A DNA stretch of 64,000 bases from positions 248,001 through 312,000 of the forward strand of contig CANTFL010001488.1 of NCBI GenBank assembly GCA_947650285.1, in the 5' to 3' direction. Every line of letters starts with the position of its first letter. Positions within the stretch are counted from its first letter, which is position 1. Position numbers and translations under genes: made by a program. Below are positions 5,202-29,958 of this stretch, in pieces. The DNA comes from Hyaloperonospora brassicae (Eukaryota > Oomycota > Peronosporomycetes > Peronosporales > Peronosporaceae). The notes beneath the pieces are model-generated. The model saw only the letters and a program-made list of their open reading frames with translations. It did no database searches and had not been told where the DNA came from.

Positions 5202-6260
5202 ATGGCTGCAGTCAAACCAGGCGCGACTTTATGCAGTCGAAGCATCAGCTCCATGCGCTGCATGCAAACGGCTCTAGTCGCCCTCATGCTCTTTGCTTTG
5301 GCTTTCGCGTACCATTTTGTATCAAAAATACCCCCTTTGCGATCAGCTCAAGACTTTGGAGACAAATCGAGCAGCGAAGTGGTGCACAGCCGATTGCTAG
5401 AGCACTCGGTAGTGCAGCTGCTGGGCTTTGACGATGGCTACAAGTTCGTCAGTGAATACAATGTCGACGAACAGGGACCCCTGTACATTTTGGTGATGAG
5501 CGGTGTGAGCGAGAGTGGCAAGTACTGGTGTCCAGACTGTGAGGATGCCAAGAAGCCCGTAATGGACGCCTTTGGCCGCTCCCCACGAGGGTCAAGACTC
5601 GTGGAGATTCGCGTGGGCCCACCTGCCTATTGGAAAGACTCGATGAACGACTTTCGACAGAATGAGCTCTTCTATTTGGACTACATCCCGACGCTTATGC
5701 GGTACGAAGGAGGTGGCAACACGTCCGCGATGCTCACCGAGTCCTTCTGCACGGACACAGCGTTGCTGGACTATACGTTTCGGGTGGACCAACCACTGGC
5801 AGGCGAGCCAAACAAGAACAAGGTGCTTACCATGTCTTCGCCTGGAGACTTGACAGACTACCTGGAAACGTACGACAACAGTTACCCGCTCTTCCTGTAC
5901 TTTGTCTCGGGCTACCACGAGTTCAATGGACGTCTATGGTGCCCGTACTGCGACCAGGCAGACGTGGCTATCATGCATTATTATAACTACACCGCACCAG
6001 ACAACGCCGTCCTAGTACGGATAATCGTGGCTGGTACGCATAAGGAGTGGAAGCAGGACACGAACCCGTATAAGCTGCCTGAGTTTCAGGAAAAGGTGGC
6101 GCCGTTGCGTGGAGTGCCGTTCCTGGGATTCGTGTCGAAGGACGTCCCTGCCAACGAGATCCGCGTGGACAAGTTCACATCGACCTACAAGGAAACTGAC
6201 AAGTTGAAGGCGTTTTTCACAAACAAACCTCAAACGACACGGCCCAGTGTAGAAAAGTAA
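5202..6260 (+). CDS. Type II membrane protein with two thioredoxin-like (TXNDC17/DUF953-type) domains, copy 1
   Basis: 352 residues from the ATG at 5202. The open frame extends upstream to 5034 but without another ATG, and this Met gives a short basic N-terminus followed by one hydrophobic segment (about 22-40, TALVALMLFALAFAYHFV). It is therefore a signal anchor with a lumenal or extracellular C-terminal body. Two thioredoxin-like domains follow. The first carries WCPDC (109-113), the active site typical of the TRP14/TXNDC17 family; the second carries WCPYC (246-250). Both have the CxxC dithiol, so disulfide reduction or isomerisation in the secretory pathway is a reasonable inference. There are potential N-glycosylation sites (NTS 173, NYT 262). 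It is the first of three tandem same-strand paralogues and the only one with both CxxC motifs. No intron is evident. Confidence 0.8.
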   Translation: MAAVKPGATLCSRSISSMRCMQTALVALMLFALAFAYHFVSKIPPLRSAQDFGDKSSSEVVHSRLLEHSVVQLLGFDDGYKFVSEYNVDEQGPLYILVMSGVSESGKYWCPDCEDAKKPVMDAFGRSPRGSRLVEIRVGPPAYWKDSMNDFRQNELFYLDYIPTLMRYEGGGNTSAMLTESFCTDTALLDYTFRVDQPLAGEPNKNKVLTMSSPGDLTDYLETYDNSYPLFLYFVSGYHEFNGRLWCPYCDQADVAIMHYYNYTAPDNAVLVRIIVAGTHKEWKQDTNPYKLPEFQEKVAPLRGVPFLGFVSKDVPANEIRVDKFTSTYKETDKLKAFFTNKPQTTRPSVEK

Positions 6261-7100: not shown

Positions 7101-8405
7101 ATGCGTCGAGGACGAGAGCGCACTGCCAATCGTTGGGGCCGCCACCGGCGCTGGATACTGGCGGCACTGGGCGCCTGTGCACTCGGCTTCATGCTCGTGA
7201 CCCAATTGCGTCTGTGGTCAGCTGCGAACTTTGTGGACCTGCGCACGAGCGCCATTAGCACAGATAGGGGGGACCCTACAACGATCGACCGCTTGACGAG
7301 GTCGAAAATCGATATACCGACTGAAGCAGTGGACGTCGTGAAGGAGTCGTCAGCTTTGCGCCTGTTTGGCCCCTCGTCGTCTGAGGCCGTCGCGGCATTG
7401 ACGCGAAACCCACCGGTTGTTCTGCCGACTGTCGTCGCTCCGGTTGAACCGGTAAGAGCTATTGCAGCAACACGTACCACAACGCGAACGGCGCCTTTGC
7501 TCAACGATCGTCACGATGTGGTTTCTGGCTACGGCGCGGCTATGGCGTACTTGGCCAACTACACGACGCCGGAAGGGTCGAACGAGCAGCTTTTCCTGTT
7601 CTTCGTCTGCGGTGATGAAGAGGGGCGACAGACGGACTGGCGCCGCGTCTGTGTGGACGCATCAAAGCTGGTGTACGACGTGTTTGCCGCGTCGCCGTCG
7701 CACAACCGGTTAGTAACGATTCACGCTGGCTCGAAGCAAAGCTGGTCGACGCCGAACGCGTTCTTCAAAGACAGTGACTTGAAGGTGAAGATGGTGCCTG
7801 CTATCATGCAGTGGCATGGAGGAAGTCCCGGGGCCAAGCGGGCCACGTCTGGCGTGATCATTGACGAAGGCTTGCTATACGAGCCGCTCCTGCGCTACCT
7901 CTTTAAGAACGAAGACGATCCAGACTCACTTGTCGCGCCGGACAAGATCGCTACAAAGACGATTGTCCTGCTCAAAGGCTACAAGCGCTACAGGTCGTAC
8001 ATGGACACGATTGCCGCTGGCGGGAATGCATCGCTGACCGCCCCGACAGGACCGCTGTTCCTCTTCTTCGTGGCTGGCCGACTGCAATCCAACGATCGTC
8101 CCTGGTGTCCGTACTGCCGGTATTCGGAGATCTCCGTCGAGTACGCGTTCTACGCGTTTGCACCGAACCAGTCGCGGCTTGTTAGGGTGGAGACAGTGGA
8201 TTCGTATGGTGCGTGGAAAAGCTCTACGAACGAGTGGAAGCAGGACACGGGGCTGATGCTTCGAGGCGTCCCGTGGATGTATCGGGCGTCGTTGGACTCT
8301 ACAGCCCACGCATTCACCTACGAGCGCATCGTCGATCACTTCGATCGTCCGGACGACTTGCGCGGCGTCTTCCAGGGCTGGAAGGACAACCCCATGTTGG
8401 CGTAA
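7101..8405 (+). CDS. Type II membrane protein with two thioredoxin-like domains, copy 2 (first CxxC lost)
   Basis: 434 residues from the ATG at 7101. A strongly basic N-terminus (RRGRERTANRWGRHRR) precedes one hydrophobic segment (about 18-35), giving a signal anchor. A Thr/Val/Ala-rich stem (about 45-135) follows, then two thioredoxin-like domains. Domain A starts with LFLFFVCGDEE; where copy 1 has WCPDC it has DWRRVC (179-184), so the first Cys and Pro are missing and one Cys remains. Domain B keeps WCPYC (335-339) and the following RYSE. The pattern suggests a structural or substrate-binding domain A and a redox-active domain B. The stem resembles that of Golgi type II proteins, but location is inferred. 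Closest to copy 3, with which it shares YDVFA, NRLVT and RPWCPYCRYSE. Confidence 0.8.
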   Translation: MRRGRERTANRWGRHRRWILAALGACALGFMLVTQLRLWSAANFVDLRTSAISTDRGDPTTIDRLTRSKIDIPTEAVDVVKESSALRLFGPSSSEAVAALTRNPPVVLPTVVAPVEPVRAIAATRTTTRTAPLLNDRHDVVSGYGAAMAYLANYTTPEGSNEQLFLFFVCGDEEGRQTDWRRVCVDASKLVYDVFAASPSHNRLVTIHAGSKQSWSTPNAFFKDSDLKVKMVPAIMQWHGGSPGAKRATSGVIIDEGLLYEPLLRYLFKNEDDPDSLVAPDKIATKTIVLLKGYKRYRSYMDTIAAGGNASLTAPTGPLFLFFVAGRLQSNDRPWCPYCRYSEISVEYAFYAFAPNQSRLVRVETVDSYGAWKSSTNEWKQDTGLMLRGVPWMYRASLDSTAHAFTYERIVDHFDRPDDLRGVFQGWKDNPMLA

Positions 8406-8660: not shown

Positions 8661-10112
8661 ATGGCGTCCCCTCGATACGACCCGCGCACTCAACGGCGGC
8701 GCCCGATCCGCCGCGGCATCAAGCGCATGTCTCTATGCTATGTGCTCGCTGGTACCTTTTTGCTGGCGTACGTGGTCTTCCTTGCGCGTTGGGGCTTTGG
8801 AACGCTGTCCAGTCTCGAAGACTTTGTGTCCACGGAGCCGCTCAGTAGTAACCTGCGCCCGACCAGGAACGCAGTGTACAGTCAGAGCGAAAATGAGACG
8901 CTGGATTCGGTCATTGCCGCGGTGCAACCCGACGAACCGCAGGGGGTCGAAAAGCACGTGCACCAAGTGGACGTTATTGACATTGGGCTTTCACGACCAG
9001 CGCCTTTGACTGCTGCTTTCGCAGCTACTGATGCGCGAAGTACTGCAGTGACAGAGATACCTGATGTACAAGAGCATAAGGTCGTTGTCGAGGAGATGAG
9101 CGAAAGTATGCAGACGATGGAAGAGATGGCCGATGCGCACGAAGCGGTACAAGCACCTGAGGTGGTGGCTGCGGAAGTGGTCGCTACTGAACGAGTGGCT
9201 GCTACAACGACACCAAAGCACGATAGGTTGACATTCACATTGGCTCCATCAGCTCCGAAATATGCGACGGTCCATGGGTATAAACCCACAAAGAAGTTCT
9301 TGAAGAGCTACCGGCACGACCCGAACGAGTCCTTGTTCCTCTTTTTTACATGTAGCGACAAGCACTTTCAAGCCAATGACTGGTCGGACGCATGTGTTCA
9401 GGGCAAACAGCACGTGTACGACGTGTTTGCAAAGTCGCCAGGACGTAATCGACTGGTGACGGTTTACGCAGGCTCGGAGAAATACTGGAAACACCACAAC
9501 GAGTTTAACGATGACCCAGACTTGCGAGTCAAGGGCGTGCCTTGCATCATGAGGTGGGACGGACGCAACGGAAGTACAGGCGGAATGCTCGTGCACGAAT
9601 CGCTCTATGACGAGCCGTTTCTCCGGTATTTGTTCAAGAACACGGACCAGCCCGAGATACTCTTTGCTCCCCAAGACGTCAAGAACAAGCAAATCGTTAC
9701 GGTGAAAGGCTATCGTGGCTACTTGGATGCCATGTCCAAGTATGTGCATGAGCAAGACCCGGTGCCTACATTCCTCATGATGGTCTCAGGCCGACTTCGG
9801 CACAACAATCGACCATGGTGTCCGTACTGCCGGTACTCTGAGTTACCTCTCGAGTTCGCCTTTTACTCGTATGCTCCGAAGAATGCGCGCATGATTCGCG
9901 TGGAAGTCACGGACTCGTACGCCGAGTGGAAAAAGCACAACAAATTCGGCCGTGACAAAAACGTGCAGCTCCGGATCGTGCCGCTGCTGTTTCACGTCAA
10001 GCCCGTTCCTGCTTCCAGCGCGAACGGCACCAAGTCATTCAAGGCCACCTCGCACAGAGTTCGCTACGATCGACTCGCTTCGTTGCGTGAGCTGTTTAGC
10101 AGTTTTGCATAA
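8661..10112 (+). CDS. Type II membrane protein with two thioredoxin-like domains, copy 3 (first CxxC lost)
   Basis: 483 residues from the ATG at 8661. A basic N-terminus (QRRRPIRRGIKR) precedes a hydrophobic anchor (about 24-44). A long acidic, Val/Ala/Glu-rich stem (about 70-190) contains runs such as EEMSESMQTMEEMADAHE that could form a short coiled coil. Domain A begins at LFLFFTCSDKHF and has DWSDAC (240-245) in place of the CxxC centre; domain B keeps WCPYC (386-390). The length difference from copies 1 and 2 lies almost wholly in the stem. Tandem position, shared orientation and shared domain order indicate local duplication. Function is inferred as a membrane-tethered lumenal oxidoreductase or chaperone-like protein; no substrate can be named. 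Confidence 0.8.
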   Translation: MASPRYDPRTQRRRPIRRGIKRMSLCYVLAGTFLLAYVVFLARWGFGTLSSLEDFVSTEPLSSNLRPTRNAVYSQSENETLDSVIAAVQPDEPQGVEKHVHQVDVIDIGLSRPAPLTAAFAATDARSTAVTEIPDVQEHKVVVEEMSESMQTMEEMADAHEAVQAPEVVAAEVVATERVAATTTPKHDRLTFTLAPSAPKYATVHGYKPTKKFLKSYRHDPNESLFLFFTCSDKHFQANDWSDACVQGKQHVYDVFAKSPGRNRLVTVYAGSEKYWKHHNEFNDDPDLRVKGVPCIMRWDGRNGSTGGMLVHESLYDEPFLRYLFKNTDQPEILFAPQDVKNKQIVTVKGYRGYLDAMSKYVHEQDPVPTFLMMVSGRLRHNNRPWCPYCRYSELPLEFAFYSYAPKNARMIRVEVTDSYAEWKKHNKFGRDKNVQLRIVPLLFHVKPVPASSANGTKSFKATSHRVRYDRLASLRELFSSFA

Positions 10113-15051: not shown

Positions 15052-16767
15052 TTACGTGTCCCTTACGAAGTTGTTGCCGCTGTACTGACACGAGTCCTGC
15101 GGGTCCGACATCTTTCGCATTTTGTTCCTGATTGTAAAGAAATACGCCTTGTGCGTTATTTCATTGACGTCCAAGATTGACGAGCTGTCGTCAACGGCAA
15201 GAGCCAGCTTTTCTGAGGCCTCGATGAACGTCATGGCATCCAGTTTCTTGTAGCTCAGACCGGTCATCTCCTGAAACTTGCGGATACGGAAGTCGCGTGG
15301 CATCTTGCCGACCATAATCCCTTCCGGAGCCTTCACCAACTTAGTGTCCACAACATCGGCATTGACCTCAGAGTCTGAAGTCATACTACGACGATTCCAA
15401 TTCGCCGATCCGATGGACAAGTACACGTCATCGATGATCACAAGTTTCGTGTGGATCGCAAGTTTTCGCGCCTTCTTGGTAGTGTAGATCGCAAACTTGT
15501 TCGGATATTTTGATCGGATGGGTTTCACGCTTTCGTACAGGTACTTGGAGTACCCTGCATATCCCATGAAACTGACTTGCGGGCTCGTGACCACGACCAG
15601 ACGCTGAATCGTTGGCATCACTTCCAAAAGCGCATTGAGAAGCTCTGGCACCAGGATAAAGTACTGGTCTTCAATGTAGATAAAGTTCTTGGCGTTCTTG
15701 ATGGCTTTGATTCGGGCTTGGAACAGCGATGTTTCGCCCCTCGGAGCAAAGTCGTAATGCTTGTACAAGCAGCTATATGTCCGTGTGATCTGAACGCTAT
15801 GGCTGCCAAGAGAGCCCGTGGTGTTGCTGCTGACGTAGTCGAGCGGGAGGATGGGCTCGTATTTGGGGTTCCTGAAATCCCGAAGGCGGTCGTCAATGTG
15901 CTGACACGGTAGAAAGTCCGAGTTCCACCGTGCCACAAAGTTGCTGGCCACGTCTTTAGCGGCAGGGCCATGAATTCGAAGGTGTCCGTCTACCCAGCCC
16001 TCACTGAGATGGTTGAGCCCAGCAGCTTTTCGGAGAGCAGAGTTGTTGTGGTGGATCGTATCCCATCGGTCTCTTGTAAATTCCACTCCACCCACATAAG
16101 CCACTGGCTGCTCGTCCGGATCCACCGAGCTATTTGCTGCGATGACCATGGTCTTCTGGTGGTGGGAGGTCAAAGCTCTGGGATAGCGGTCGTCAAAGAT
16201 GAGCACGGCTTTCGCACCGTTGATTGGGGAAGGCGGAATGCTGTTGATGGCATCGCGCGCCTTGACGTTCAACTTTCTGTAATTCGTGGAGATAGTGGCC
16301 CAATTGAGAATGTCGACACTTCCGCCTCGCTTGACTACTCCAGCAAACACTTCCTTGATGCCAGTTGTCGTTCCCTTGGGATCAATGTCAGGTTTCAGTG
16401 GCACAAGAGCCAGAGACCAGGCAGCAAGTAACACGCGGTCGCCCACTTTCGTTGCACTGAGCTCGTCATAGACTGCGTTGAAGAACTCGTTGGACACCGT
16501 GTAGGATGTCACCTTGTTGCCTGTCGTGAACACCGCCATGTCGTCTCGAGGGATACCGCCGCGCGACGCCGTGATCTCGTTTTTTGTGAGGAACCATTTC
16601 TTGGCGTCCAGCAGAGGCTGCCGGGCCTTGATGTCGGTTCCATTGGATGGGTCAGCAGGACTCTCTTGCTCGGAGTCATCTTCGAGGGACGACGTCGATG
16701 GGGAGAAGAACGCAGACACGGAAACTCGTGCGAACGCGAGCGCGATACAAAAGGTGACGCGACGCAT
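15052..16767 (-). CDS. Secreted phospholipase D-like protein, copy 1
   Basis: 571 residues from the ATG at 16767. The frame is open to 16860, but this Met begins a clean signal peptide (RRVTFCIALAFARVSVSA), so it is preferred. After an acidic Ser-rich linker (22-45) come two PLD half-sites. The first, HHQKTMVIA (202-210), has H203 and K205 but Ala at 210 where HxKxxxxD has Asp. The second, HTKLVIID (439-446), is complete and followed by GSANWNRRS. IYIEDQYF (363-370) is the conserved segment before the second half. PLDs hydrolyse phosphodiester bonds of phospholipids; small secreted PLD-like proteins are known in Phytophthora. Catalysis is plausible but the altered first motif makes it uncertain. 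A paralogue lies at 58932-60614 on the same strand. Confidence 0.85.
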   Translation of the reverse strand: MRRVTFCIALAFARVSVSAFFSPSTSSLEDDSEQESPADPSNGTDIKARQPLLDAKKWFLTKNEITASRGGIPRDDMAVFTTGNKVTSYTVSNEFFNAVYDELSATKVGDRVLLAAWSLALVPLKPDIDPKGTTTGIKEVFAGVVKRGGSVDILNWATISTNYRKLNVKARDAINSIPPSPINGAKAVLIFDDRYPRALTSHHQKTMVIAANSSVDPDEQPVAYVGGVEFTRDRWDTIHHNNSALRKAAGLNHLSEGWVDGHLRIHGPAAKDVASNFVARWNSDFLPCQHIDDRLRDFRNPKYEPILPLDYVSSNTTGSLGSHSVQITRTYSCLYKHYDFAPRGETSLFQARIKAIKNAKNFIYIEDQYFILVPELLNALLEVMPTIQRLVVVTSPQVSFMGYAGYSKYLYESVKPIRSKYPNKFAIYTTKKARKLAIHTKLVIIDDVYLSIGSANWNRRSMTSDSEVNADVVDTKLVKAPEGIMVGKMPRDFRIRKFQEMTGLSYKKLDAMTFIEASEKLALAVDDSSSILDVNEITHKAYFFTIRNKMRKMSDPQDSCQYSGNNFVRDT

Positions 16768-17692
16768 GACGCGTCTTGAGGAATGAGCTTGAGGGGTGCG
16801 GGCGGACGGTGGCCAGCTGTCTTTTTGGATCAGGATCATGGAGATGGTGGAGACATGCACTGGTTTGCTGGATGATCATCCGGTTTCGCGAGGAAAGTCC
16901 ATCGAATTGATGTTCTGTCCATCTGATGTATGGATCCATTGGGTACGCAAAGGCACTCACTGCCGCTACGATCAATTGTCGATCTTAAGCCCGCGAGCTC
17001 GACCCGTTATATCGAGAGCAAAAGTGCAGATCAAACCACGAGCGTCTGTGAAAGATGAAGTGGAATCGCACGAGCACGAGCGGAGCGCCAACCCATTAGT
17101 TCGCCTGACTCGTTTAGCTCGGACAGTTTCACGTCATATTAGGCTGAGGCCTCTTCTGATCCCGACCAGACCGCAAGACCACTGCGCGACATAGAAAGGC
17201 GCGCGAGCGGTAAAACGACGGAAAAAGCGATACCGGCGATGCTATTGTTGATGGCTGCAAAAGACTGCGAAGAGACCACCAGTGTAGGAGCATTTGTCCG
17301 TGCGACATGGATCGCCATGTGCATCGCATGAGCTCAACTGTTGCGGTGTTTACACATGGATTGGTTTAACTGCTCTCATTATTGTGTTGACAAACCATCA
17401 AGCGCAAGAATCGTGGAAGAATTATAGTATCCTGGATGTGCGAGTCGAATTCCATATCTTTTGCTGAGTTAGACGTTATCGTTGAAACGCAAGTCATTGT
17501 GAATGCGAGCATGTTCCAACGCATCGCCATTTGTTTTCATTCTCAAGGCTTATGTTACCTTCGCGGACGATGCAGAGAAGATCCTACGTTGGCAAATTGT
17601 GTGCCTGCATTAGCAATTGCAATAACTGATACTATTGTGCAAAAATTTTAATTATGGCAAAGACACCCCAAATCGTTGACCACAGAAGACTG
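16768..17692. other. Upstream region of PLD-like copy 1, no gene supported
   Basis: A plus-strand frame of 132 codons (16796-17194) opens with GTG, not ATG, and has no family features. It runs against the PLD promoter region. No repeats were found. The promoter of the minus-strand PLD gene should lie just above 16767. Confidence 0.35.
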
Positions 17693-20101: not shown

Positions 20102-20106
20102 TAACG
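20102..20106. repeat. Target-site duplication, left copy (TAACG)
   Basis: The five bases before the 5' LTR are TAACG, identical to those after the 3' LTR. A 5-bp duplication is typical of gypsy integrases. Confidence 0.85.
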
Positions 20107-20497
20107 TGTAACGGGGCAGCCCGTTACATGAAATTGTCACTTTAAGGAAAGTGACAATAAAGAATATGAAGTTGAATATTCTTTAAACAATATCACCAAA
20201 GTGGTGATATTGAAGGGTCGACCAAAGAGTCTGTTCATTGGTTGATATCTTTGTGATTTCAACCCACCAATCGCCGCAAGACGCGCGCAATGAGTGGTGA
20301 CGAGACGTCACCATACACCCAGTTATATTAGTATAGTTAAACTAAGTCAAACAGAGAGACAGTAGTTAAAAGACTTAATTTTATTAATATAACAGTTCTG
20401 CTTTTACCCTACCTACGCTTCCTCGCTTGCCACGTGTACGTCTGTCGGGGCACCGAAACCCTTGCGTTAAGTTCACGCAAGGGTGTGCCCCGTTACA
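20107..20497 (+). repeat. 5' LTR
   Basis: 391 bp from TGTAACGGG to CCCCGTTACA. It contains at least six local inverted repeats, for example 20107-20115/20120-20128, 20133-20143/20148-20158, 20188-20198/20202-20212 and 20458-20467/20475-20484. The promoter and polyadenylation signals should lie within it, but no unambiguous TATA or initiator was fixed. Confidence 0.95.
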
Positions 20498-20499
20498 CC

Positions 20500-20517
20500 T
20501 GGTAGCACTCCGTAGTC
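20500..20517 (+). other. Candidate primer-binding site
   Basis: TGGTAGCACTCCGTAGTC begins 2 nt after the 5' LTR. TGG at the start matches the CCA end of a tRNA, as expected for a minus-strand primer site. The tRNA was not identified. Confidence 0.45.
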
Positions 20518-20541
20518 CTTCCAAGGACCACAACATCCAAC

Positions 20542-21696
20542 ATGAACATGTTGGATGAAGAAGAAACCTTTCACGCCACGCGTGAAGGGTTTACCCATTT
20601 GAGTGACATCGAATGGGGTGCGGTAGAACGAATGAGTTCTACCGTAGGCGAACTCGCCGTTAGCGCCATGTTGGAGTCTCTAGACAGAGACCAACAACAT
20701 GCCGCTATCGCCAAGTTCATTCAAAATGAACTTGCCATCGAGAGGGAGAAAGTAGCCTTGCTTCACCAGCAAGGCTCTCAACAGGCCGAGCAGTTGAGAG
20801 AACTCGGTGCTCAACAGACGGAGCTGTTGAGACAGCAGCAATTCCATGCTGCTGTGGGCGGGACGGCGCATGCGCGTCGTCCCGAAGTCATGAAAGTTGA
20901 CATCTCCAAGTACAGTGGAGTCCCGGAGGACTCCCTGTTACTATGGTTTGTCGAACTCGACAGAGCCCTAAGGGCTTGTCGCGTCGAAGATGAGCAAATG
21001 AAACTCACATTTGCTCAGACCCAGTTGGCAGGGCGTGCCAAAACTTGGTCCCTGGGACTCGAGAGTAGCGACCCAAACGTGTTTAGGTCGCTAGATGACT
21101 TCAAGTCCCGGCTCAGACAAACGTTTGAGCCGCCACGGGCCGAGTTCAGGGCTCGTTCAGAGCTCCTGAAACTCAAGCAGGGTAAGCGTGATGTGCACGC
21201 TTACGCACAACATATACGACTCCTTGCGAGTAGTATAACCGCTAACCCAGTACATGAACACACGTTGAATACGGTGTTTATGCAAGGGCTCGCAGAGGGG
21301 CCCGTCAAGAGCCACCTGTTCCGCCTTGATCTGAATACGCTGTAAGATGCGATATCAGCCGCGGAACAGGAAGACTTTAGCATGAGACAGGCTCATGCTA
21401 GCGCGAGTTCTTATCGTCCACCGAGACGACAAGAGATCGGAGGTCCAGAACCAATGGACCTCTGCTATGTTGAGAGCGAGAGGCCTCGCTCTTCGAACAA
21501 CAAGCGATTGCAGAGGTGCAATCGCTGTCAGAAGTTAGGGCACTACGCATACGAGTGTAGTGCTCCACGCCCAGTACCAAACAGTACTGAGCGAATTGGA
21601 CGACCAATTGCCAGAAAGGGCAATGGGCGTGGGTCCAGCGCAGTTGCGAAGCCGCAACAGCGAGACAGACCATCAAAAAATGGTCGGGGTCAGTAG
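20542..21696 (+). pseudogene. Gag polyprotein, interrupted by one stop
   Basis: An ATG at 20542 opens 267 codons, then a TAA at 21343-21345; the same frame continues to a TAG at 21694-21696. The N-terminal part holds a Gln/Glu-rich helical stretch (about 60-105, likely coiled coil). A capsid-like retrotransposon gag domain follows (about 120-260, with GRAKTWSLGLES and FEPPRAEFRARSELLKLKQG). After the stop come a basic linker and one zinc knuckle, CNRCQKLGHYAYEC (C-x2-C-x4-H-x4-C), complete. Gag packages element RNA in cytoplasmic particles. The TAA separates capsid from nucleocapsid, so this copy should not make full-length Gag unless the stop is read through. The pol frame overlaps its 3' end by -1. 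Confidence 0.85.
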
Positions 21697-21715
21697 GGGC
21701 GGAGCGCCCTACTGA
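21675..21715 (+). promoter_or_regulatory. Programmed -1 frameshift signal between gag and pol
   Basis: The heptamer A AAA AAT lies at 21675-21681, with codons AAA (21676-21678) and AAT (21679-21681) in the gag frame. Slippage by -1 enters the frame that reads through the protease without a stop. An 8-nt spacer (21682-21689) is followed by a 9-bp perfect hairpin, arms 21690-21698 (TCAGTAGGG) and 21707-21715 (CCCTACTGA). Heptamer, spacer length and stem match the eukaryotic -1 frameshift model. The gag stop TAG (21694-21696) lies inside the left arm. Confidence 0.7.
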
Positions 21716-23099
21716 TCCAGCAACCTCAAGAAAATTTGCAAATCTCTTGATGAAAGTTGCTCCAGATACACAATCATTGTATGTCTCTGCACCTGGTGAT
21801 GACGTTTCGCTCATCACCTTGAAGTTGGAAGCGACAAATGATTTGTCGCTTCGTGCCCTAGTAGACTGTGGGGCGTCGAACAACTTCGTTCGACGCCAGT
21901 CACTAGAGGTTCGTAGGCTCAAGTTCGTTGAGCGCGACATTCCCCTCAGAAGGATGAAGGTGCGCCTTGCAACAGGCGCATCGATAACCGTTGAGAAACG
22001 TGTAGTAGGAATCCACTACACGTTAGAGGGCGAACAGTACGATGATGACTTCATCGTACTAGATCTGGATGACAAATTCAATGTTATCCTGGGATTACCT
22101 TGGCTCAGAAAGTACGAGCCAAGGGTGAGCTGGCAGCATCGATCCGTGAAGATGCCTGCCGCTTGTTCATCAGATGGCCATCTGATGAACATCTTGGAGC
22201 GTCCACAAGCGTGTGGATGTTCTGCGAGTGAGTGCGATGGCCTCACTTGCGGTACGGTCGTTAGAACGACTGCACAAGATCACAGTGTAGTTGATCACTA
22301 CACTGTGGAGCAAGCTCCCGGCGGCTGTACACAAGTACAGGCTGCGCCGAAGGTCCACCACTCGAATAAGTCGAGTGGACCGGGACATAGATGCATGCCT
22401 AGCGGGAAGCATCTTAGAAGTAAGAAACCTGTTGCCTTCAAAGAGCAACACGGATATCCTAGGTCGACTGGATAGTCGACCGTAGAGGATCGGTTCCTGA
22501 CTGTGGTTGCACAGCCACAGTCGGAAGACGTCGAGGGAATAAGTCCCCACGTACTTGAGGAAGGAATTCCTCAAGAGTCGCTTGCTGAGGGATCAGGCCC
22601 TCATCAACCTGTGGAAGAAAGTTCCCAGGAAGAAACCGAGACGTTGAACGTCTTGGTTAATGACGGATCAAGCGTAGGCGCTTATACGCTTGATCTGATT
22701 GTACCTCCGAAGTTGACTTCGGAGATGACTCAGTTGCCAACGCTAGAACCGAAACGGTTCTTGCGTGATCTGCGTAGTGGCAAAGTCAAGAAGATCTGCA
22801 TACTCGTCACAGAGGATGAGTATGTGGCCGATATTCGGTCGGCAACAGTATTTGCTGAGAACGAACGGGTTCTCAGCAGCTCATCGATGGACGAAAGTGT
22901 CCTCGATGAGAAGACTCGGATGGAGCGATACACGTCTCAATCCTGGGAGTCACTTCAGGCAAATCCTTTGTATAAGGATTTGATCGAATTCAGGGATGTA
23001 TTCCCTGAATCCGTACCTTCCGAGTTGCCTAAGGACAAAGGCACTCGACACGAGATCGAGCTCAAACCGGGCTCGAAGTATTGTGTCATGAAGCAGTAG
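21681..23099 (+). pseudogene. Pol N-terminal region: aspartic protease and linker to RT
   Basis: The frame is open upstream of the gag stop and is entered by the -1 signal. The protease active site DCGASNNFVRR begins near 21858; Asp-Cys-Gly is a DSG/DTG variant, and ILGLPWLRKY supplies the hydrophobic flap-end motif. A TAG at 22473-22475 and another at 23097-23099 break the frame, while the reading frame itself is unchanged into RT. Between them lies a charged linker (VLSSSSMDESVLDEKTRME) that also survives in a decayed copy near 37.4 kb, so it is a conserved part of the family. The protease matures Gag-Pol. Confidence 0.8.
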
Positions 23100-24758
23100 C
23101 CACTACCTCGTGAACAAGTGATAGCGATCGACAAGTTCTTTGCCGATCGCTTAGCAGCGGGCCATGTGAGGGAATCAACATCCCCTCACAGCTCTCCGAC
23201 CTTCTGTGTGCGAAAGGCCACAGAAGGGTGGCGGATAGTGCACGCATTCAACAAGTTGAATGCTGCAACGGTACCGGCTCAGACGCCGATACCGAGGAAG
23301 GACGTAATCATAGATGGTATGTCAAAGAGTAAAATCTTTTCGTCCATGGATCTGATGGATGGATTCTATCAGATCCTGATGCGTGAACGGGACATCCCGT
23401 ATACAGCAGTGAGAACCCCCAGAGGTATGCTGTGGGAGTGGCTAGTGATGCCACAGGGGCTGAGTAATGCCCCTGCAACATTCAACAGATGTGTCACAAA
23501 TCTGTTGAGACCGGTGCGAGACTTCGCACCGAGTTACTTCGACGATGTGTTCGTTCATAGCCGGGCTATGGACGGAAAGACGGACGTTGAAGTTCACAGA
23601 ACTCACGTTCGTCAGGTTCTTCAACTTATGCGCAAGTATAAGTTGTACGCCAACCTCAAGAAGTGTATATTCGCGGCTAGCGAAATACCACTTCTTGGGT
23701 GCATCGTGGGTAAACACGGCGTACGCCCTGATCCCGAAAAGATCAAGGCAATCACCGACTGGCCAGTGCCAGTCGATGTCAAGGGACTAAGGAAGTTCCT
23801 TGGTCTAGCGGCGTACTTGCACAAGTACTCGCGCAACTACGCCGAGATGACTGTTCATCTTTCTTGTCTGCTCAAGAAAAATGTCAAGTGGTCATGGAAC
23901 GCTGAGTGCCAGCGTTCCTTTGAAAGTATCAAGCAAAGCTTGATGCAATCGCCGGTCTTGGCGATTGCAGATCAGGACAGACCATTTCATGTGGTCTGTG
24001 ACGCCAGCGATTTCGCAATCGGCTGTGCGTTAATGCAGTTCGATGCAGATGGCGCGGAGCGCGTCATCTGTTATCAGTCGCGTCAGCTGCAAGCAGCTGA
24101 GCGTAATTACCCAGTGCATGACAAGGAACTCCTTGCCATGAAGTACGCACTGGCTAAGTTTCGCGTCTATCTCTTGGGAGATAGACCGTTCATCGTCTAT
24201 ACGGACCATGCGTCATTACGCACGGCCGTAAACAGCCCACATCTCTCGCAAAGGATGGCGAGGTGGCTGTCTTTCTTCGCGGAGTATAACTTCTCCGTGG
24301 ACTATAAACCAGGACGACTCAATGTCGTCGCTGATGCTCTTTCGCGCCGGCCCGATTTCGAGCCGGACGCACAAATCAACAGTGAGGATAAGCCCACTGT
24401 TGCGACACTGTCAGTCAGTGTCCCGTCGTCAAGTTTACTTGACGACGTACGAAAGGCATACGCGGCAGATAAAGATCTTCTGCGATTGATGGAACATTTG
24501 GTGAATCCATCCAGTAAATCCATGAGGGATTTACCGGCTTTGTACCGGTCCTCATCGGATCGGTATAGTACACGCAACGGATTGCTGTACTATACAGCTG
24601 TTGCCGACGACACGCCTCGTGTCGTCGTACCCGCTCATCATGATTTGCGTTTGCGCATCATGTATGAGTGTCACGATGCCCCAACAAGCGGCCATCGTGG
24701 TAGGGAAAAGACTTACCTCACGGTAAGTCGTGACTTTTACTGGCCCCGCCAGTGTTAG
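23100..24758 (+). pseudogene. Reverse transcriptase, RNase H and integrase zinc domain
   Basis: 552 open codons in the protease frame, starting straight after the TAG at 23097-23099. RT motifs are in order: IPRKDVIIDGMSKSKIFSSMD, MPQGLSNAPATFNR and the catalytic YFDDVFVHS (near 23535). RNase H follows with CDASDFAIGCALMQFD, HDKELLAMKYALAKFRVYL and YTDHASL. The integrase HHCC zinc domain begins (HHDLRLR, HDAPTSGHRG, FYWPRQC) and is cut by TAG at 24756-24758, just before its second Cys pair (CEVCQR, still readable downstream). RT and RNase H copy element RNA into DNA in the particle. All catalytic residues I can check in RT are present, so this part could be active if translated. Confidence 0.9.
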
Positions 24759-25356
24759 TTTGTTCGCAAGTACATACGTGCTTGCGAGGTTTGTCAACGG
24801 GTGAAGACTAGTCCTTCTTCCGTGCGCCATTGCAGCCTCTGCCTGTTCCGGCAGAGTGCTGGCAGTCCGTTTCAATGAACTTCGTCTTCGGTTTACCCGA
24901 AGAAGCTCACAAGAATAATGGTATTCTTGTGTTTGTTGACCGATTCAGCAAGATGTTCCATCTTGCTGCAGTCCCTGAGTCGATCAAGGCTCAAGGTTGT
25001 GCTCGTGTCTTTCTAGACACGGTTTTTAGACTCCACGGGTTACCCCGTGAACTCGTATCCGACCGTGACCCTCGGTTCACGGCGGCATTTTGGCAAACCG
25101 TGTTCCGTACTCTCGGAACACGATTAAAGATGTCCACTTCTGACCATCCAGAAACAGATGGTCAGACGGAACGTGCGAACCGTGTCCTCGAAGAGATCCT
25201 TCGAGGATATGTCCACTCGTTTCCGAGTTGGAGCGAATTCCTACCCATGGTGGAATTCGCCATCAATAATTCGGTGCATGCTTCAACACAGCACACACCG
25301 TTTTACGTGAATGGACTACGCCATCCACGAGTGCCCGCCCTTATAGAGTGTGACTC
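24759..25356 (+). pseudogene. Integrase catalytic core (DDE), frameshifted
   Basis: After the TAG the protein shifts frame near 24810-24830. It then reads NFVFGLPEEAHKNNGILVFV, the first catalytic Asp in VDRFSKM, the second in SDRDPRF, and the Glu in NRVLEEIL, so the DDE triad is intact. GYVHSFPSWSEFLPMVEFAI is the usual core end. The frame is lost again near 25340-25360, where the C-terminal domain continues in the next frame. The core inserts the DNA copy into the genome. Two frame changes on either side make the copy integrase-dead. Confidence 0.85.
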
Positions 25357-26589
25357 GTGGATAAGGGGGGAAGGACTCGCTCGAGCAAAAACCATTTTGG
25401 CTCTTGCTCATCACGTGTCGACGCTAACGTCGTCACGTATGATGCCGATGTCGATCAAGTCGACATCGATGAAGAAGATCAGCTCAATAATAGCGATGAC
25501 GCTATTACTGACTCGGATGATGATGACGATGATGGTATATTCAGCATCGTCAACGATTATTCCAGCGAGGAAGAAGACAACCTCGCTGAAGAAGAGAGCA
25601 ATCTCTTAGCAGTGCGCACGAAGCGCACTGAAAGACAAAATAAAGAGTCAGCAGAGAACTTTCTGCTGACTCGAGAAGCGGTAGTCCGTTTCGTTCAGGA
25701 CTCCATCGCAAATGCAGTGGACTGTCAGAAACGGAACGCAGACAAGAATGGAAGAGCAAATGTTCTTTCATTTTAGGTTAACGACCTAGTACTACTGTCT
25801 ACGGTAAACTTACCTGAACATGCAGTCACTAGTGTCGGCAGTTGTAAACTACTGCCGAAATACATTAGGCCATTTCGAGTGCTGTATCGCAAGGGCAATG
25901 CATACACACTCGAATTGCCACGTAGAATGCGCACGCATCCTACGTTTTACGTGGGGAGGCTTAGGCCGTACTGTCAGTACGAGCCTTCATCTTCCGATGA
26001 AGATAGCCCCCACGTTCATGAACATCCATCAAGTTCTTGCGTTCGCGCTCCAGACGATCCGTCTGGTCGCGCAGATATGATACCTCGGAACTCAACCGAG
26101 ATATCTCCCCGCGAGCTGTCGCCAGCTCGCCGAATAGGGAGCAGACATCCCGCTCGACCTGAAGCTGCGCTGTGGCATAATCGGCGCGATTCCTCGCCCG
26201 ATCAGCCTCGTGATCCTTGCGTTTCTTCCGCACGGTATCGGTCAAAGCGTAGCGCCGGTCGCGCTCGTGCTTCAAGTCATCGCGCAATTCATCGATTGCG
26301 CGATACATCTTGTAAGGGTCGAGATAGTGAATCGAGTCATCTGGAGGAGGTCTTTCCTCCTCCACCACATCCTTTGGTGGATGCTCACGGTGATCAACGC
26401 TTTCTAGTGGAGCGTATCTTGAATCACCTTGACGATTCAGGATCAAGGACGAGCTACCTCGTCCAGTGGCGGGGGTATCCACCCTCTTGGAACAGCTGGG
26501 AGCCCCGCTCTCAGCTGTTGATGGATGTTGAAGGTCTCGTCCGCCAGTATGACGAGACCCGTCCGATGAGTCCTGTGGCTCATCGGTAA
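25357..26589 (+). pseudogene. Integrase C-terminal domain, acidic insert and chromodomain
   Basis: One frame from 25357 to 26589 with a single TAG at 25774-25776. It begins with an unusual acidic insert (DITDSD-like runs, including six consecutive Asp). The GPY-like integrase tail follows (FRVLYRKGNAYTLELPRR, then GRLRPYC), then an Arg/Ser/Pro-rich linker of about 110 residues. It ends with a chromodomain ([26 protein letters not shown]) with the aromatic cage positions Trp/Tyr/Trp. Chromodomains of chromoviruses steer integration to histone-marked chromatin. The linker overlaps the coiled-coil segment of the antisense frame, and it is the linker rather than the antisense that looks non-globular. 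Confidence 0.8.
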
Positions 26590-27565
26590 ACACGCGCCCT
26601 AGGCGCTTGTAGACGGATTGCAAGTTTGCAATCGCGTCACTCATCTCAGCCGAGATGTGTGTCCTTCCCCAGGGCGAATTTAGGGACTACACATCCCTAT
26701 GTGCACGCTGCGAGTTGTCAACACAACTCGCACAAGGGTCTCCCCATGTGAGGCAAGGAATGCCTGCCTCACTCGACAAACAGTGCAACCGGTACCTAGC
26801 ACCGGTTGGCGTTCTCCTTTCGAACCTGAGGCGTGTCGCCTCAAGTTTCTTGAGCCACCCTTCTCGTCCAAAATTCTTTACGTTTTGGACGAACGCGTTC
26901 CACGCAGCCAAAAGCGATGTTTTGTCACCTTTTCAGTTGCTGTTGTACCATCGATGTCTAAGAAAGACATCGAGATAAAAATCTTCTTCAGCGCGAAAGT
27001 TCTTCGCGCTGGAATTCAAGCCGTGAAGCTCAGTTGCATCGAATAAGGGTATTCGATGATGTTGGCCTGTCTCGTGAGACAGGCTATTGATGAGCCGTTA
27101 TGGCAAACGCCACGGCTTCAGATCATCACGCTTCACAGTGGTACCCTTGTCGGTACCACGATTGTCAGTATGACGATGGGTTGCACCATCGTCAAGTCGC
27201 TCGTGCGAAGGAGCACGAGCTGATTGCGGTGATGAGCAAACATACTCATCACCCGATTCGTCATCACTGCCGAACAGACTGTGTTGCAACTCACTAGTTC
27301 GTTCGTTCGGCAGTGGCCTTGGCGAATACTGAGGCGTCGCCGGTGAGCGAGACGCCTCTGGAACATTGCCCGAGTCAGACACGTCTGACTCGCCAGAGTA
27401 GATGACCTCTACGTCGAGATCATCATGCGCACGCGGTGAGGTGCCGCGTGCACCTGCAGCACCTGTTGCTGCAGGCGGAGAAGGAGCAGCAGACGACGAA
27501 TCGTCTGCCGCAGAGGCTGGCACAGCACCGGGCTGTGCGGGTCTTTAGTCACCTCGCATAGACAT
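25961..27565 (-). pseudogene. Antisense reading frame inside the retrotransposon (535 codons, four stops)
   Basis: One minus-strand frame runs from an ATG at 27565 (MSMRGD) to a stop at 25961. It is broken only by stops at 27545-27547, 27098-27100, 26933-26935 and about 26688-26690, with no frame change. The product has an Ala/Ser/Pro-rich acidic head, a central segment with basic and aromatic residues (WNAFVQNVKNFGREGWLKKL) and a Cys cluster (CLTWGDPCASC). A strongly charged helical tail is likely coiled coil (ERDRRYALTDTVRKKRKDHE, RLERERKNLMD). It overlaps the chromodomain reading frame on the other strand. Antisense genes near the 3' end are known in some plant Ty3/gypsy elements; homology to those is not claimed. 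Function unknown. Confidence 0.6.
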
Positions 27566-27684
27566 GTTAACTATGCGAGGCCAAGCGGGAAGTGAATGGA
27601 ACGGACCCAACAAGTGCTCCCTGTCCCAATGGTGGCCAACGGGTGGCCTCCATATTTTCGGTAGTCACACGGTGACTATCAGTT

Positions 27685-27695
27685 AAGGGGGGTGA
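27685..27695 (+). other. Candidate polypurine tract
   Basis: AAGGGGGGTGA immediately precedes the 3' LTR (TG at 27696). A purine run at this position is the usual plus-strand primer of LTR retrotransposons. Confidence 0.6.
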
Positions 27696-28086
27696 TGTAA
27701 CGGGGCAGCCCGTTACATGAAATTGTCACTTTAAGGAAAGTGATAATAAAGAATATGAAGTTGAATATTCTTCAAACAATATCACCAAAGTGGTGATATT
27801 GAAGGGTCGACCAAAGAGTCTGTTAATTGGTTGATATCGTGATGATATCAACCCACCAATCGCCGCAAGACGCGCGCAATGAGTGGTGACGAGACGTCAC
27901 CATACACCCAGTTATATTAGTATGATTAAGCTAAGTCAAACAGAGAGACAGTAGTTAAAAGACTTAATTTTATTAATATAACAGTTCTGCTTTTACCCTA
28001 CCTACGCTTCCTCGCTTGCCACGTGTACGTCTGTCGGGGCACCGAAACCCTTGCGTTAAGTTCACGCAAGGGTGTGCCCCGTCACA
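27696..28086 (+). repeat. 3' LTR
   Basis: 391 bp, about 97% identical to the 5' LTR by hand count (about 11 substitutions). Four of the differences fall within 9 bases of one hairpin (loop and right arm), where this copy has a perfect 10-bp stem (27829-27838/27844-27853) and the 5' LTR has one mismatch. The last bases are CCCCGTCACA instead of CCCCGTTACA. Confidence 0.95.
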
Positions 28087-28091
28087 TAACG
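28087..28091. repeat. Target-site duplication, right copy (TAACG)
   Basis: TAACG directly after the 3' LTR, matching 20102-20106. Confidence 0.85.
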
Positions 28092-28477: not shown

Positions 28478-28913
28478 TGTAACGGGGCACAGATAGCTAC
28501 GCACTGGCACTACTGCGTAGCAACCTCTAATTGACCACAGTGAGATTTAGAGCCCTGTTGTATTTACGTACATAATGCGACGAGAAATACTTTGACTAAG
28601 CGACTACACTAGCGATAGAAAGGAAAACTGTATTAATATAAGCAAGTTCTAAAATATATCTTGTCTTGTTAGATTATCTTGACTACATAAATTTATTAAA
28701 AATATGGTGGCGTCTACTCACCATCCATTGCGCACGTCTAGAAGCGATTGATGACTTGATAAAATGGCTATATTAACCAATGAGTTGACCCTTGGTCACT
28801 GCAACAAAATCACTAAGTTTAGTGATATTGAAATGAGAATTGTAGACATAACGTATACTCTATATCATATTGTCATCTATGATAATATTATGTAACAGGA
28901 TCTCCCCGTTGCA
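28478..28913 (-). repeat. Degenerate solo LTR A of the same family, minus orientation
   Basis: It starts TGTAACGGGGCAC and ends CCCCGTTGCA, the reverse complement layout of the intact LTR. The internal block CACCATCCATTGCGCACG followed by TCTAGAAGCGATTGATGA aligns with the reverse complement of the LTR centre. No matching target duplication was found. A hairpin with arms GCTACGCA (28496-28503) and TGCGTAGC (28514-28521) sits where the intact LTR has a different stem. Confidence 0.7.
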
Positions 28914-28972
28914 TTCCCACTGTATGAACCCCGATTGGTAAACGTGGAATAAACCTCTTTAATTTTTAAGAC

Positions 28973-29444
28973 CGTAACGAGGTATGTACCGGGACACCGG
29001 ACGCTTGTACTGTACAGTACAAGCTGTCTACACTGACCTCGGAATGTGCAGGAGCCTCTACTTCTCACGCTTTTGTAGGTGCAGGGGTAGGTCTAATATA
29101 CGAACCCGCTTCCATATAGGAAGTTGTGTAACTGTACGTAATTTAGATAAAGTAACTTATAAAAACTTATTGGTTTTGCTAAGCTATAATACTCTACAAA
29201 TATCAAAGGCAGCTAGTCACTTGCCGCCCATGGAACTCGTCTGGCAGCGATTGATGGTCAATCTAATTGACTTATTGGTCTTTATAGACCGGTAATTAGA
29301 AGAGGGCTGAATTCCGCTTCGGAATGTAATGTTCCTTCAGTATTTACTCAACAAGGTGAAGATTGGTAAATATTAGCAAATTTGGATGATTTTGTAAATG
29401 ATAAAGTGGGTGGTAATTACATCTCACGAAATCATCTCGTTACA
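28973..29444 (-). repeat. Degenerate solo LTR C, minus orientation
   Basis: It begins CGTAACGAGG and ends ATCTCGTTACA. The centre (CTCGTCTGGCAGCGATTGAT, near 29238) matches the reverse-complemented LTR. It contains a 22-bp perfect palindrome at 29003-29024 with arms GCTTGTAC and GTACAAGC. No clear target duplication. Confidence 0.6.
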
Positions 29445-29528: not shown

Positions 29529-29958
29529 TGTAACGGGATACTGCTTACCTCGTACTGGTATTCCAGTACGGAGATGACCTTCACTGTTAACAGTGAAGAT
29601 CAGTGCTATAATAAGTGTAAGTACTACACCGAAAAACGAATGAACAACTAAGGCAAGACTCTTGCTGAAGGAACAGTAAAAGTGTTATTTGATACAATTA
29701 AGTCCTATAACTCTTGTTCTCTGTTTTGACCTATCTAAATTATATAAATAATACTAAAGTCTACTAACCACTTACTGCGCCCGTCTAGCAGCGATTAGTG
29801 GGTTGATATATGCACAATACCAACGAACGAGTAGACACTTGTGTCATCTCAACAATATTACTATAATTCGTGATATTGCAGAAGGAAAATTAAATGTAAT
29901 ATTCTCTAGTATCATTTCGCACAATGATGAGTTTAATGTAACGGGCTACCCCGTTACA
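29529..29958 (-). repeat. Solo LTR B, minus orientation, with ATTCT target duplication
   Basis: TGTAACGGGA to CCCCGTTACA, flanked by ATTCT at 29524-29528 and 29959-29963. The exact 5-bp duplication shows a true insertion followed by LTR-LTR recombination. The internal block GCGCCCGTCTAGCAGCGATT aligns with the LTR centre. It carries a hairpin 29551-29558/29563-29570 and a 20-bp perfect palindrome at 29579-29598. Confidence 0.85.

What the first reader, a model, noticed from the sequence alone, without database searches (positions are those of the whole stretch)
20107..28086. Retrotransposon tiled end to end with short perfect inverted repeats
Across LTRs, gag, pol, integrase and the antisense region, successive 25-40 nt blocks contain a word and its exact reverse complement. 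Hand-verified examples: 20107-20115/20120-20128, 20133-20143/20148-20158, 20188-20198/20202-20212, 20621-20629/20636-20644, 20712-20721/20725-20734, 20754-20762/20768-20776, 21182-21190/21196-21204, 23123-23130/23144-23151, 23165-23172/23183-23190, 23200-23208/23219-23227, 23244-23252/23255-23263, 23348-23356/23368-23376, 23482-23490/23500-23508, 23512-23519/23524-23531, 26533-26541/26551-26559, 26616-26623/26626-26633. In random DNA a 9-bp arm with loop up to 20 nt is expected roughly 0.1 times per kb; here I see well over ten per kb in the stretches examined. Host genes in the same window do not show it. The coding sequence therefore appears to be under a second, structural constraint, or shaped by a templated mutation process. 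I know of no named element class with this property.
Basis: seen in the sequence. Interest (0 to 1): 0.92.

Follow-up and report, generated by a model that had tools for sequence, protein, structure and literature searches.

The report
Retrotransposons tiled with perfect hairpins
A very abundant jumping gene in a downy-mildew-like genome is built end to end from short, exactly self-complementary hairpins that evolution has kept by matched changes on both sides, and a second jumping-gene family in the same genome does the same with shorter hairpins; why they do so is not known.

Summary
All 16 listed hairpins are exact. The element, a Ty3/gypsy retrotransposon, holds 104 perfect hairpins (arm >=8, loop <=20) against 2.6+-1.6 in dinucleotide shuffles; its RT frame holds 20 against 0.6 in codon shuffles. 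Five host ORFs, seven copia loci and two gypsy fragments are at background. The LTR-start hairpin (at most one mismatch) occurs 2,637 times in the genome. Relatives 15-30% diverged keep hairpins in place through double compensatory changes, 19 seen against 2.2 expected. Degenerate third positions diverge 20% in arms, 33% elsewhere. Compensation is mostly single-pair, without loop inversion. So selection most likely keeps the pairing. Stems are mostly 8-10 bp, spans fall off near 30 nt, and G-U pairs are not favoured, so both strands seem to matter. A second gypsy family is tiled with 5-bp stems, 56 against 12 in codon shuffles. Ten literature searches listed no precedent. Function is unproven; small-RNA evasion is my leading guess.

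The parts
20107..28086 (+). hairpin-tiled Ty3/gypsy retrotransposon; 104 perfect inverted repeats of arm >=8, loop <=20
20107..20497 (+). 5' LTR, 391 bp, TG...CA; opens with a 9-bp-arm, 4-nt-loop hairpin (20107-20128)
27696..28086 (+). 3' LTR, 391 bp, 11 mismatches to the 5' LTR
20102..20106 (+). target-site duplication TAACG (left)
28087..28091 (+). target-site duplication TAACG (right)
27685..27695 (+). polypurine-rich tract before the 3' LTR (read by eye)
20542..21345 (+). gag (PF03732); 9 hairpins vs 0.47 in codon shuffles
21382..21696 (+). zinc knuckle (PF13917/PF00098, both below the curated cut-offs)
21747..22475 (+). aspartyl protease region (PF08284); 9 hairpins vs 0.45
23118..24758 (+). 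reverse transcriptase, RNase H, integrase zinc domain (PF00078, PF17917/PF17919, PF17921); 20 hairpins vs 0.63
24830..25609 (+). integrase core (PF00665); 11 hairpins vs 0.44
25879..26589 (+). chromodomain (PF00385); 6 hairpins vs 0.36
20133..20158 (.). example hairpin in the LTR (11-bp arms, loop 4)
23244..23263 (.). example hairpin in RT (9-bp arms, loop 2)
29540..29958 (-). diverged LTR of the same clade (72-74% identical over aligned stretches of 196 and 297 bp), opening with a matching terminal hairpin

Best explanation
SHOWN: this Ty3/gypsy clade carries an array of discrete Watson-Crick hairpins (stem mostly 8-10 bp, loop mostly 2-10 nt, span mostly below 30 nt, median centre spacing 40 nt) through LTRs, coding and non-coding parts. 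The array is older than the split of subfamilies 15-30% apart, and pairs are kept by compensatory change. Coding hairpins sit where the protein is variable and in the codon registers that use synonymous freedom. G-U pairs are not favoured and both strands fold equally. A second gypsy family shows the same kind of array with 5-bp stems. INFERRED: purifying selection on pairing acts while the element is active and ceases in dead copies; what is selected is local self-folding of the element's nucleic acid in both polarities (DNA, or sense plus antisense RNA), with a stem size set by something specific to each family. GUESSED (about 1 in 4): the gain is escape from small-RNA silencing, because the antisense guide and the sense target both fold; the hairpin span is close to the 25/26-nt transposon small RNAs of Phytophthora.
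For: Density against dinucleotide and codon nulls. Shared positions and compensation: gag region, window to L034, 21 of 29 hairpins have a hairpin (arm >=7) at the same centre, 19 double compensatory changes vs 2.2 expected (12 vs 0.9 in the reverse direction). 26 LTRs: 40 cells changed on both sides vs 18.7+-4.1 shuffled, 0 of 500. With hairpins defined in a third lineage (L034), degenerate third positions: L009-L035 divergence 47/235 in arms vs 284/859 elsewhere, p=8e-5; variants shared by at least 2 of 30 copies 9/235 vs 74/863, p=0.012; singletons 20/235 vs 90/863. All sites: shared 24/880 vs 151/3128, p=0.007; singletons 91/880 vs 342/3128. Register: 8 of 59 hairpins pair third with third codon positions, p=0.0008. 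Arms lie at protein-variable residues, entropy 1.37/1.35 vs 1.05, p=2e-5. Both strands: one-mismatch stems GT/TG 11, AC/CA 8, other 10 (L009); LTR pairs with a Watson-Crick majority 81 vs 87; folding z -8.5 sense, -8.4 antisense (L009). Sizes (loops 3-12, L009): 8:17, 9:16, 10:14, 11:2, 12:1. Second family: 56 five-bp stems vs 12.2 in codon shuffles. The genome has three Piwi-domain ORFs and one RdRP ORF.
Against: No RNA or small-RNA data exist here, so the function is untested. Only 17-32% of 21- or 25-nt windows of the three copies tested (L009, L034, L031) self-fold with a stem >=5 bp (3-8% in shuffles), so guide self-folding would protect only in part. In the LTR test the number of distinct pairs with double changes was not above shuffles (14 vs 12.2; 153/500), although cells were; over all 87 LTR pairs, including five whose commonest state is not Watson-Crick, GT/TG is 125 and AC/CA 88. 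With family-defined hairpins, singletons too are fewer in arms (135/1515 vs 327/2636, p=0.0006), which weakens the contrast between shared and private variants. One pol hairpin carries 4 of the 14 compensatory changes. Stem lengths 5-7 are also in mild excess in L009 (56, 20, 11 vs 24.9, 6.6, 2.2), so the lower edge of the size range is not sharp. 5-bp hairpins with 3-nt loops are weak, which makes selection on each one hard to picture (inference).
Confidence: 0.66

Rival explanations
1. Templated mutation: during reverse transcription the nascent strand folds back (template switching) and rewrites one arm from the other, so imperfect palindromes become perfect without selection for structure.
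For: Arms are strictly Watson-Crick and strand-symmetric. Template switching is documented as a way to create and maintain perfect hairpins (PMC8794818; abstract and passages seen). One hairpin (L002 #41) shows a 4-base block in the 5' arm that matches a largely conserved 3' arm, and one pol hairpin carries 4 of 14 compensatory changes. New pairs in L009 arose more often in the 5' arm (30 vs 12 against L034+L033; 16 vs 8 against L034+L035).
Against: Compensatory changes are mostly isolated (adjacent pairs 3 vs 1.6 expected in gag, 1 vs 0.2 in pol) and loops are not inverted (closer to inverted in 1 of 24, 0 of 24, 0 of 28, 0 of 35 against L034; 2 of 25 and 4 of 47 against the older L035). 31 of 38 compensatory changes between the window family and L034 are transitions, as two independent hits predict (about 75%, my estimate), against 55% at other sites (p=0.0009). 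Arms diverge more slowly at degenerate third positions, which conversion alone would not give (inference). Arm asymmetry is absent at protein level and is 3:1 and 1:3 in L034 and L035.
Confidence: 0.17
2. Ordinary sense-strand RNA structure: genome-scale ordered RNA structure or dispersed packaging hairpins bound by Gag, selected only on the genomic RNA.
For: Very strong RNA folding (mean z -8.5); a weak zinc-knuckle match beside gag; arrays of stem-loops serve packaging in some RNA viruses (recalled, no call). Over all 87 LTR pairs GT/TG exceeds AC/CA, 125 to 88.
Against: G-U pairs, functional in RNA, are no commoner than A-C mismatches at stem ends (14 vs 19 window, 18 vs 16 L034), among substitutions in the gag region (window to L034 5 vs 11, reverse 7 vs 4), or in the 82 LTR pairs with a Watson-Crick majority (81 vs 87), and scarcely commoner in one-mismatch stems (11 vs 8); antisense folds as strongly as sense. 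No loop motif was seen by eye among the loops of 3-5 nt printed.
Confidence: 0.1
3. Guide-and-target folding that evades small-RNA silencing is the selective reason (a specific form of the best explanation, so its odds are part of those).
For: Small RNAs in Phytophthora infestans map across gypsy elements in both orientations (PMC3522703, passages), and the 25/26-nt class is mainly associated with transposable elements (PMC3804510, passages). Hairpin spans peak at 22-25 nt and fall off near 30. Both-strand pairing is what complementary guide and target would need (inference). The genome has three Piwi-domain ORFs and one RdRP ORF.
Against: A third or less of small-RNA-sized windows self-fold; the 5-bp family's hairpins are short; seven copia loci in the same genome have no hairpin excess.
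Confidence: 0.22
4. Chance, base composition or assembly artefact.
For: None found.
Against: About 40-fold excess over shuffles; 53-65 hairpins in each of the 30 copies fetched, mostly at shared places; 2,637 LTR starts; covariation.
Confidence: 0.01

Closest known systems
Genome-scale ordered RNA structure (GORS) of RNA viruses (definition recalled; only a search listing seen)
   Same: Pervasive local folding through coding sequence, beyond composition- and codon-preserving shuffles.
   Different: Here it is an LTR retrotransposon, LTRs included; discrete, perfectly paired hairpins of a narrow stem length; antisense equals sense; G-U not favoured.
Template-switch-generated hairpins (Monttinen and Loytynoja 2022, PMC8794818; abstract and passages seen)
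   Same: Perfect stems kept perfect by compensatory change.
   Different: There microRNA and rRNA gene stems; here a whole element with about 100 hairpins, without loop inversions and with mostly isolated compensation.
Ty3/gypsy retrotransposons with integrase chromodomain in oomycetes, including Chronos (PMC5348765; passages seen)
   Same: gag-protease-RT-RNaseH-integrase-chromodomain order, LTRs.
   Different: No second (archaeal-type) RNase H domain was seen in the frames scanned, which defines Chronos; the word hairpin does not occur in that paper's main text.
Cis-acting hairpins of Ty1/Ty3 RNA
   Same: Local stem-loops in a retrotransposon RNA.
   Different: Those are a few functional sites (recalled; search listing only); here hairpins are spread over the whole element.

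Membership tests
Ty3/gypsy LTR retrotransposon | RT of Ty3/gypsy type, RT before integrase, gag and protease | tested here: met
   Pfam matches in order along the window
Ty3/gypsy LTR retrotransposon | two LTRs TG...CA and target-site duplication | tested here: met
   391-bp LTRs, TAACG duplication
Chronos (oomycete chromodomain gypsy) | chromodomain at the 3' end of pol | tested here: met
   PF00385, E 3.6e-12
Chronos (oomycete chromodomain gypsy) | additional archaeal-type RNase H | tested here: not met
   no second RNase H stretch in the nine frames scanned with Pfam; frames of the window copy are broken elsewhere, so a remnant could be missed
GORS-type RNA structure | folding energy far below composition-preserving controls along the genome | tested here: met
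   12 of 12 windows of 250 nt in L009 have z of -6.3 or lower, dinucleotide shuffles
GORS-type RNA structure | selection on the genomic (sense) RNA, G-U tolerated | tested here: not met
   sense and antisense equal; GT/TG not clearly above AC/CA and in 82 of 87 LTR pairs (above it, 125 vs 88, over all 87)
template-switch hairpins | clustered compensatory changes or loop inversions | tested here: not met
   one pol hairpin with 4 compensatory changes is an exception
template-switch hairpins | perfect Watson-Crick arms | tested here: met
small-RNA-evading element | reduced small-RNA loading or target cleavage because of structure | not testable with these tools
   no small-RNA data for this organism

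The most novel reading that the evidence does not exclude
A new class of retroelement whose entire genome, LTRs and genes alike, is built from an array of Watson-Crick hairpins of a family-specific stem length (8-10 bp in one family, 5 bp in another). The array is selected on both strands at once, as a second code laid over the protein code, and one such family is highly amplified in its host genome.
Probability: 0.55. Interest if true: 0.93.

Novelty: categorically new. Interest (0 to 1): 0.87.

Why it matters
A pervasive structural code over a protein-coding mobile element, with covariation and a stem length that differs between families, would be a new kind of constraint on DNA. It makes testable what keeps a retrotransposon successful against silencing, and whether folding of both strands of a genome can be selected. 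It also warns that perfect-palindrome density can mark whole transposon families rather than regulatory sites.

Tried and rejected

Chance and codon usage: rejected. Host-wide process: not supported; in ten arbitrarily placed 9-kb stretches 36 of 71 hairpins (arm >=8) fall in the 6,565 nt (of 90,000) related to this clade, and 35 in the other 83 kb, where letter shuffles give about 24; seven copia loci (found by PF07727) show nothing. A partial exception: the first 5 kb of L066, which holds a gypsy-like stretch, has 54 five-bp stems against 34 expected, folding z near 0. RNA wobble constraint: no clear support (and 82 of the 87 LTR pairs); the exception is all 87 LTR pairs together, GT/TG 125 to AC/CA 88. 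Arm directionality at protein level: none. Loop mutability: singletons are higher in loops with L034-defined hairpins (59/317 vs 342/3128) but not with family-defined hairpins (64/480 vs 327/2636); left open. My first comparisons of arm conservation were biased, because hairpins were chosen in one of the two sequences compared (and the arm percentages); for the claim of selection I rely on hairpins defined in a third lineage. My early reading of L031/L032 as plain gypsy controls was wrong: they carry 5-bp stems. Long arms have fewer long loops in L034 (p=0.003) but not significantly in the window copy (p=0.16). Cost in residue choice of arms is borderline (p=0.045 at arm >=8, 0.064 at arm >=7).


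Full report
WHAT IS THERE. The window lies in a 100.6-Mb genome of 898 contigs. A host protein in the window is closest to Hyaloperonospora arabidopsidis and Peronospora matthiolae, at 66-67% identity, so the host is probably a member of Peronosporaceae, not named further. At 20107-28086 stands a Ty3/gypsy retrotransposon: two 391-bp LTRs with 11 mismatches, the target duplication TAACG, and gag, protease, RT-RNaseH, integrase and chromodomain frames. The window copy's frames are broken; other copies have open frames of up to 1,666 codons at the matched place. Forty places, the window's own included, are 97-100% identical in pol (40 scored of 2,296 first-look candidates). The LTR-start hairpin with at most one mismatch occurs 1,310 + 1,327 times in the genome, and 0 times for the reversed control.

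Perfect hairpins (arm >=8, loop <=20) number 104 against 2.6+-1.6 in dinucleotide shuffles, evenly spread at 10-17 per kb. Against codon-preserving shuffles each of six frames is about 17-32 times over. Over 4.6 kb the window copy has 54 hairpins, 29 other copies 53-65. Predicted RNA folding is extreme on both strands (mean z -8.5 and -8.4 in L009, -7.9 and -7.6 in the window copy, -6.8 and -7.8 in L034; host genes about 0).

ANATOMY. With loops of 3-12 nt, exact stem lengths in L009 are 8:17, 9:16, 10:14, 11:2, 12:1, all against 0.25 or fewer expected; lengths 5-7 are in milder excess (56, 20, 11 against 24.9, 6.6, 2.2). Total span is enriched from 16 nt, peaks at 22-25 and falls off near 30. 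The commonest centre spacing is 30-45 nt (37 of 83 intervals below 200 nt; median 40). Arms have nearly the same G+C as the rest. In coding sequence the register that pairs third with third codon positions is rare (8 of 59, p=0.0008), so hairpins use synonymous freedom. They sit at residues that are variable among 120 homologous proteins (entropy 1.37/1.35 in arms against 1.05, p=2e-5); a cost in residue choice is borderline (p=0.045 and 0.064 at two arm cut-offs).

CONSERVATION AND COVARIATION. Three LTR-to-LTR relatives from the same genome, 71-85% identical in their main matches, hold 62, 97 and 30 hairpins (2.3-2.7 in letter shuffles). In the gag region, 24% diverged from L034, 21 of 29 window hairpins have a hairpin at the same centre, with 19 double compensatory changes against 2.2 expected, and 12 against 0.9 in the reverse direction. 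Among 26 LTRs, 40 cells are changed on both sides against 18.7+-4.1 (0 of 500 shuffles), though the number of distinct pairs involved is not above shuffles (153 of 500). With hairpins defined in a third lineage, degenerate third positions differ between L009 and L035 in 47/235 arm sites against 284/859 other sites (p=8e-5). Variants shared by at least two of 30 copies are 9/235 against 74/863 (p=0.012), while singletons are 20/235 against 90/863. This is the pattern of selection in active lineages and decay afterwards. A second way of choosing hairpins gave fewer singletons in arms as well (p=0.0006), so the last contrast is not clean.

SELECTION OR TEMPLATED COPYING. Template switching is a documented maker of perfect hairpins (PMC8794818, abstract and passages). 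Here compensatory changes mostly stand alone (one pol hairpin has four), loops are not inverted against L034 (1 of 24, 0 of 24, 0 of 28, 0 of 35 closer to inverted; 2 of 25 and 4 of 47 against the older L035), and 31 of 38 compensatory changes are transitions against 55% at other sites. These favour two independent hits under selection. Against this, one hairpin looks block-copied, and new pairs in L009 came more often through the 5' arm (30:12 and 16:8), but not in L034 and L035 taken together (3:1, 1:3).

WHICH MOLECULE. Were only the sense RNA folding, G-U pairs should be favoured. One-mismatch stems have GT/TG 11, AC/CA 8 (L009); first outer mismatches 14 against 19 (window) and 18 against 16 (L034); the 82 LTR pairs with a Watson-Crick majority 81 against 87. 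Over all 87 LTR pairs it is 125 against 88, the difference coming from five pairs whose commonest state is not Watson-Crick. Sense and antisense fold alike. I read this as a constraint symmetric between strands: DNA folding, or RNA of both polarities.

A SECOND FAMILY. My intended control, a gypsy family 64% identical over 1.36 kb of RT (L031, L032; later L077-L079), proved to be tiled too, with 5-bp stems: in L031 56 against 12.2+-3.3 in codon shuffles, in L032 53 against 11.6; 4-bp stems are also raised (77 against 44), 6-bp weakly (7 against 3.1), 7 bp and more not (0 against 0.6) at loops of 3-8, apart from one 11-bp stem with loop 10. Loops of 5-bp stems peak at 3 nt, and 27 of 55 centre spacings below 80 nt are 15-25 nt. 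Folding z is about -3 to -4 on both strands in L031 and L032 and -1.2 to -2.7 in L077-L079. Arms diverge less than other sites (1.4% against 4.8%, L031 to L032, arms chosen in L031, so biased). Compensatory changes between subfamilies are few: 3, 1, 3, 1 and 0 against 0.1-0.3 expected in five comparisons. Seven copia loci (two of them near-duplicates) and two gypsy fragments of the window are plain.

MECHANISM. I commit to this: the element's nucleic acid is selected to fold locally in both polarities, in units whose size is set by something specific to each family. The most likely gain is protection from small-RNA silencing, since a hairpin disables guide and target together and only Watson-Crick pairs serve both. 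Phytophthora has 25/26-nt small RNAs mainly associated with transposable elements (PMC3804510, passages), in both orientations over gypsy elements (PMC3522703, passages), and this genome has Piwi-domain and RdRP ORFs. But only 17-32% of small-RNA-sized windows self-fold, so this step stays a guess (about 0.22).

NOVELTY. Ten literature searches listed no report of a hairpin-tiled retrotransposon. I saw listings, the first 10 of 96 and of 62 papers, and the library holds open-licence papers only. A survey of perfect inverted repeats in 118,019 genomes used arms >=10 and loops up to 8 and, in the passages seen, names enrichment in DNA transposons and MITEs and calls for work on transposable elements (PMC13155455).

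Noticed in passing
L031, L032, L077-L079 (G000:C10, C854, C849, C158, C92): Second Ty3/gypsy family tiled with 5-bp-stem hairpins, loops peaking at 3 nt, 27 of 55 centre spacings at 15-25 nt.
   Followed up: partly
window 29540-29958 (-) and 28496-29024: Diverged LTR of the same clade on the other strand next to the element, with further hairpins; about 40 places at 72-78% identity listed from the genome (capped list).
   Followed up: partly
window 20107-28086 and relatives: Hairpin span falls off near 30 nt, and in L034 longer arms have shorter loops, the opposite of a simple stability threshold.
   Followed up: partly
loops of hairpins in L001-L030: Loops change faster than other sites in several comparisons; an excess of singletons depends on how hairpins are defined.
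   Followed up: partly
L066:1-5000: 54 five-bp stems against 34 expected but folding z near 0; perhaps a decayed piece of the 5-bp family.
   Followed up: no
window 15083-16664 and 58933-60514: Two 94% identical copies of a 1.58-kb coding stretch (frames 15052-16860 - and 58932-60623 -), phospholipase-D-like by eye.
   Followed up: no
window 5034-6260, 7101-8405, 8661-10112: Three similar-looking thioredoxin-like genes in a row (similar by eye); the third has PF06110 relatives in other oomycetes.
   Followed up: no
window 25961-26644 (-) and 27098-27523 (-): Antisense open frames of 227 and 141 codons in the element without Pfam match.
   Followed up: no
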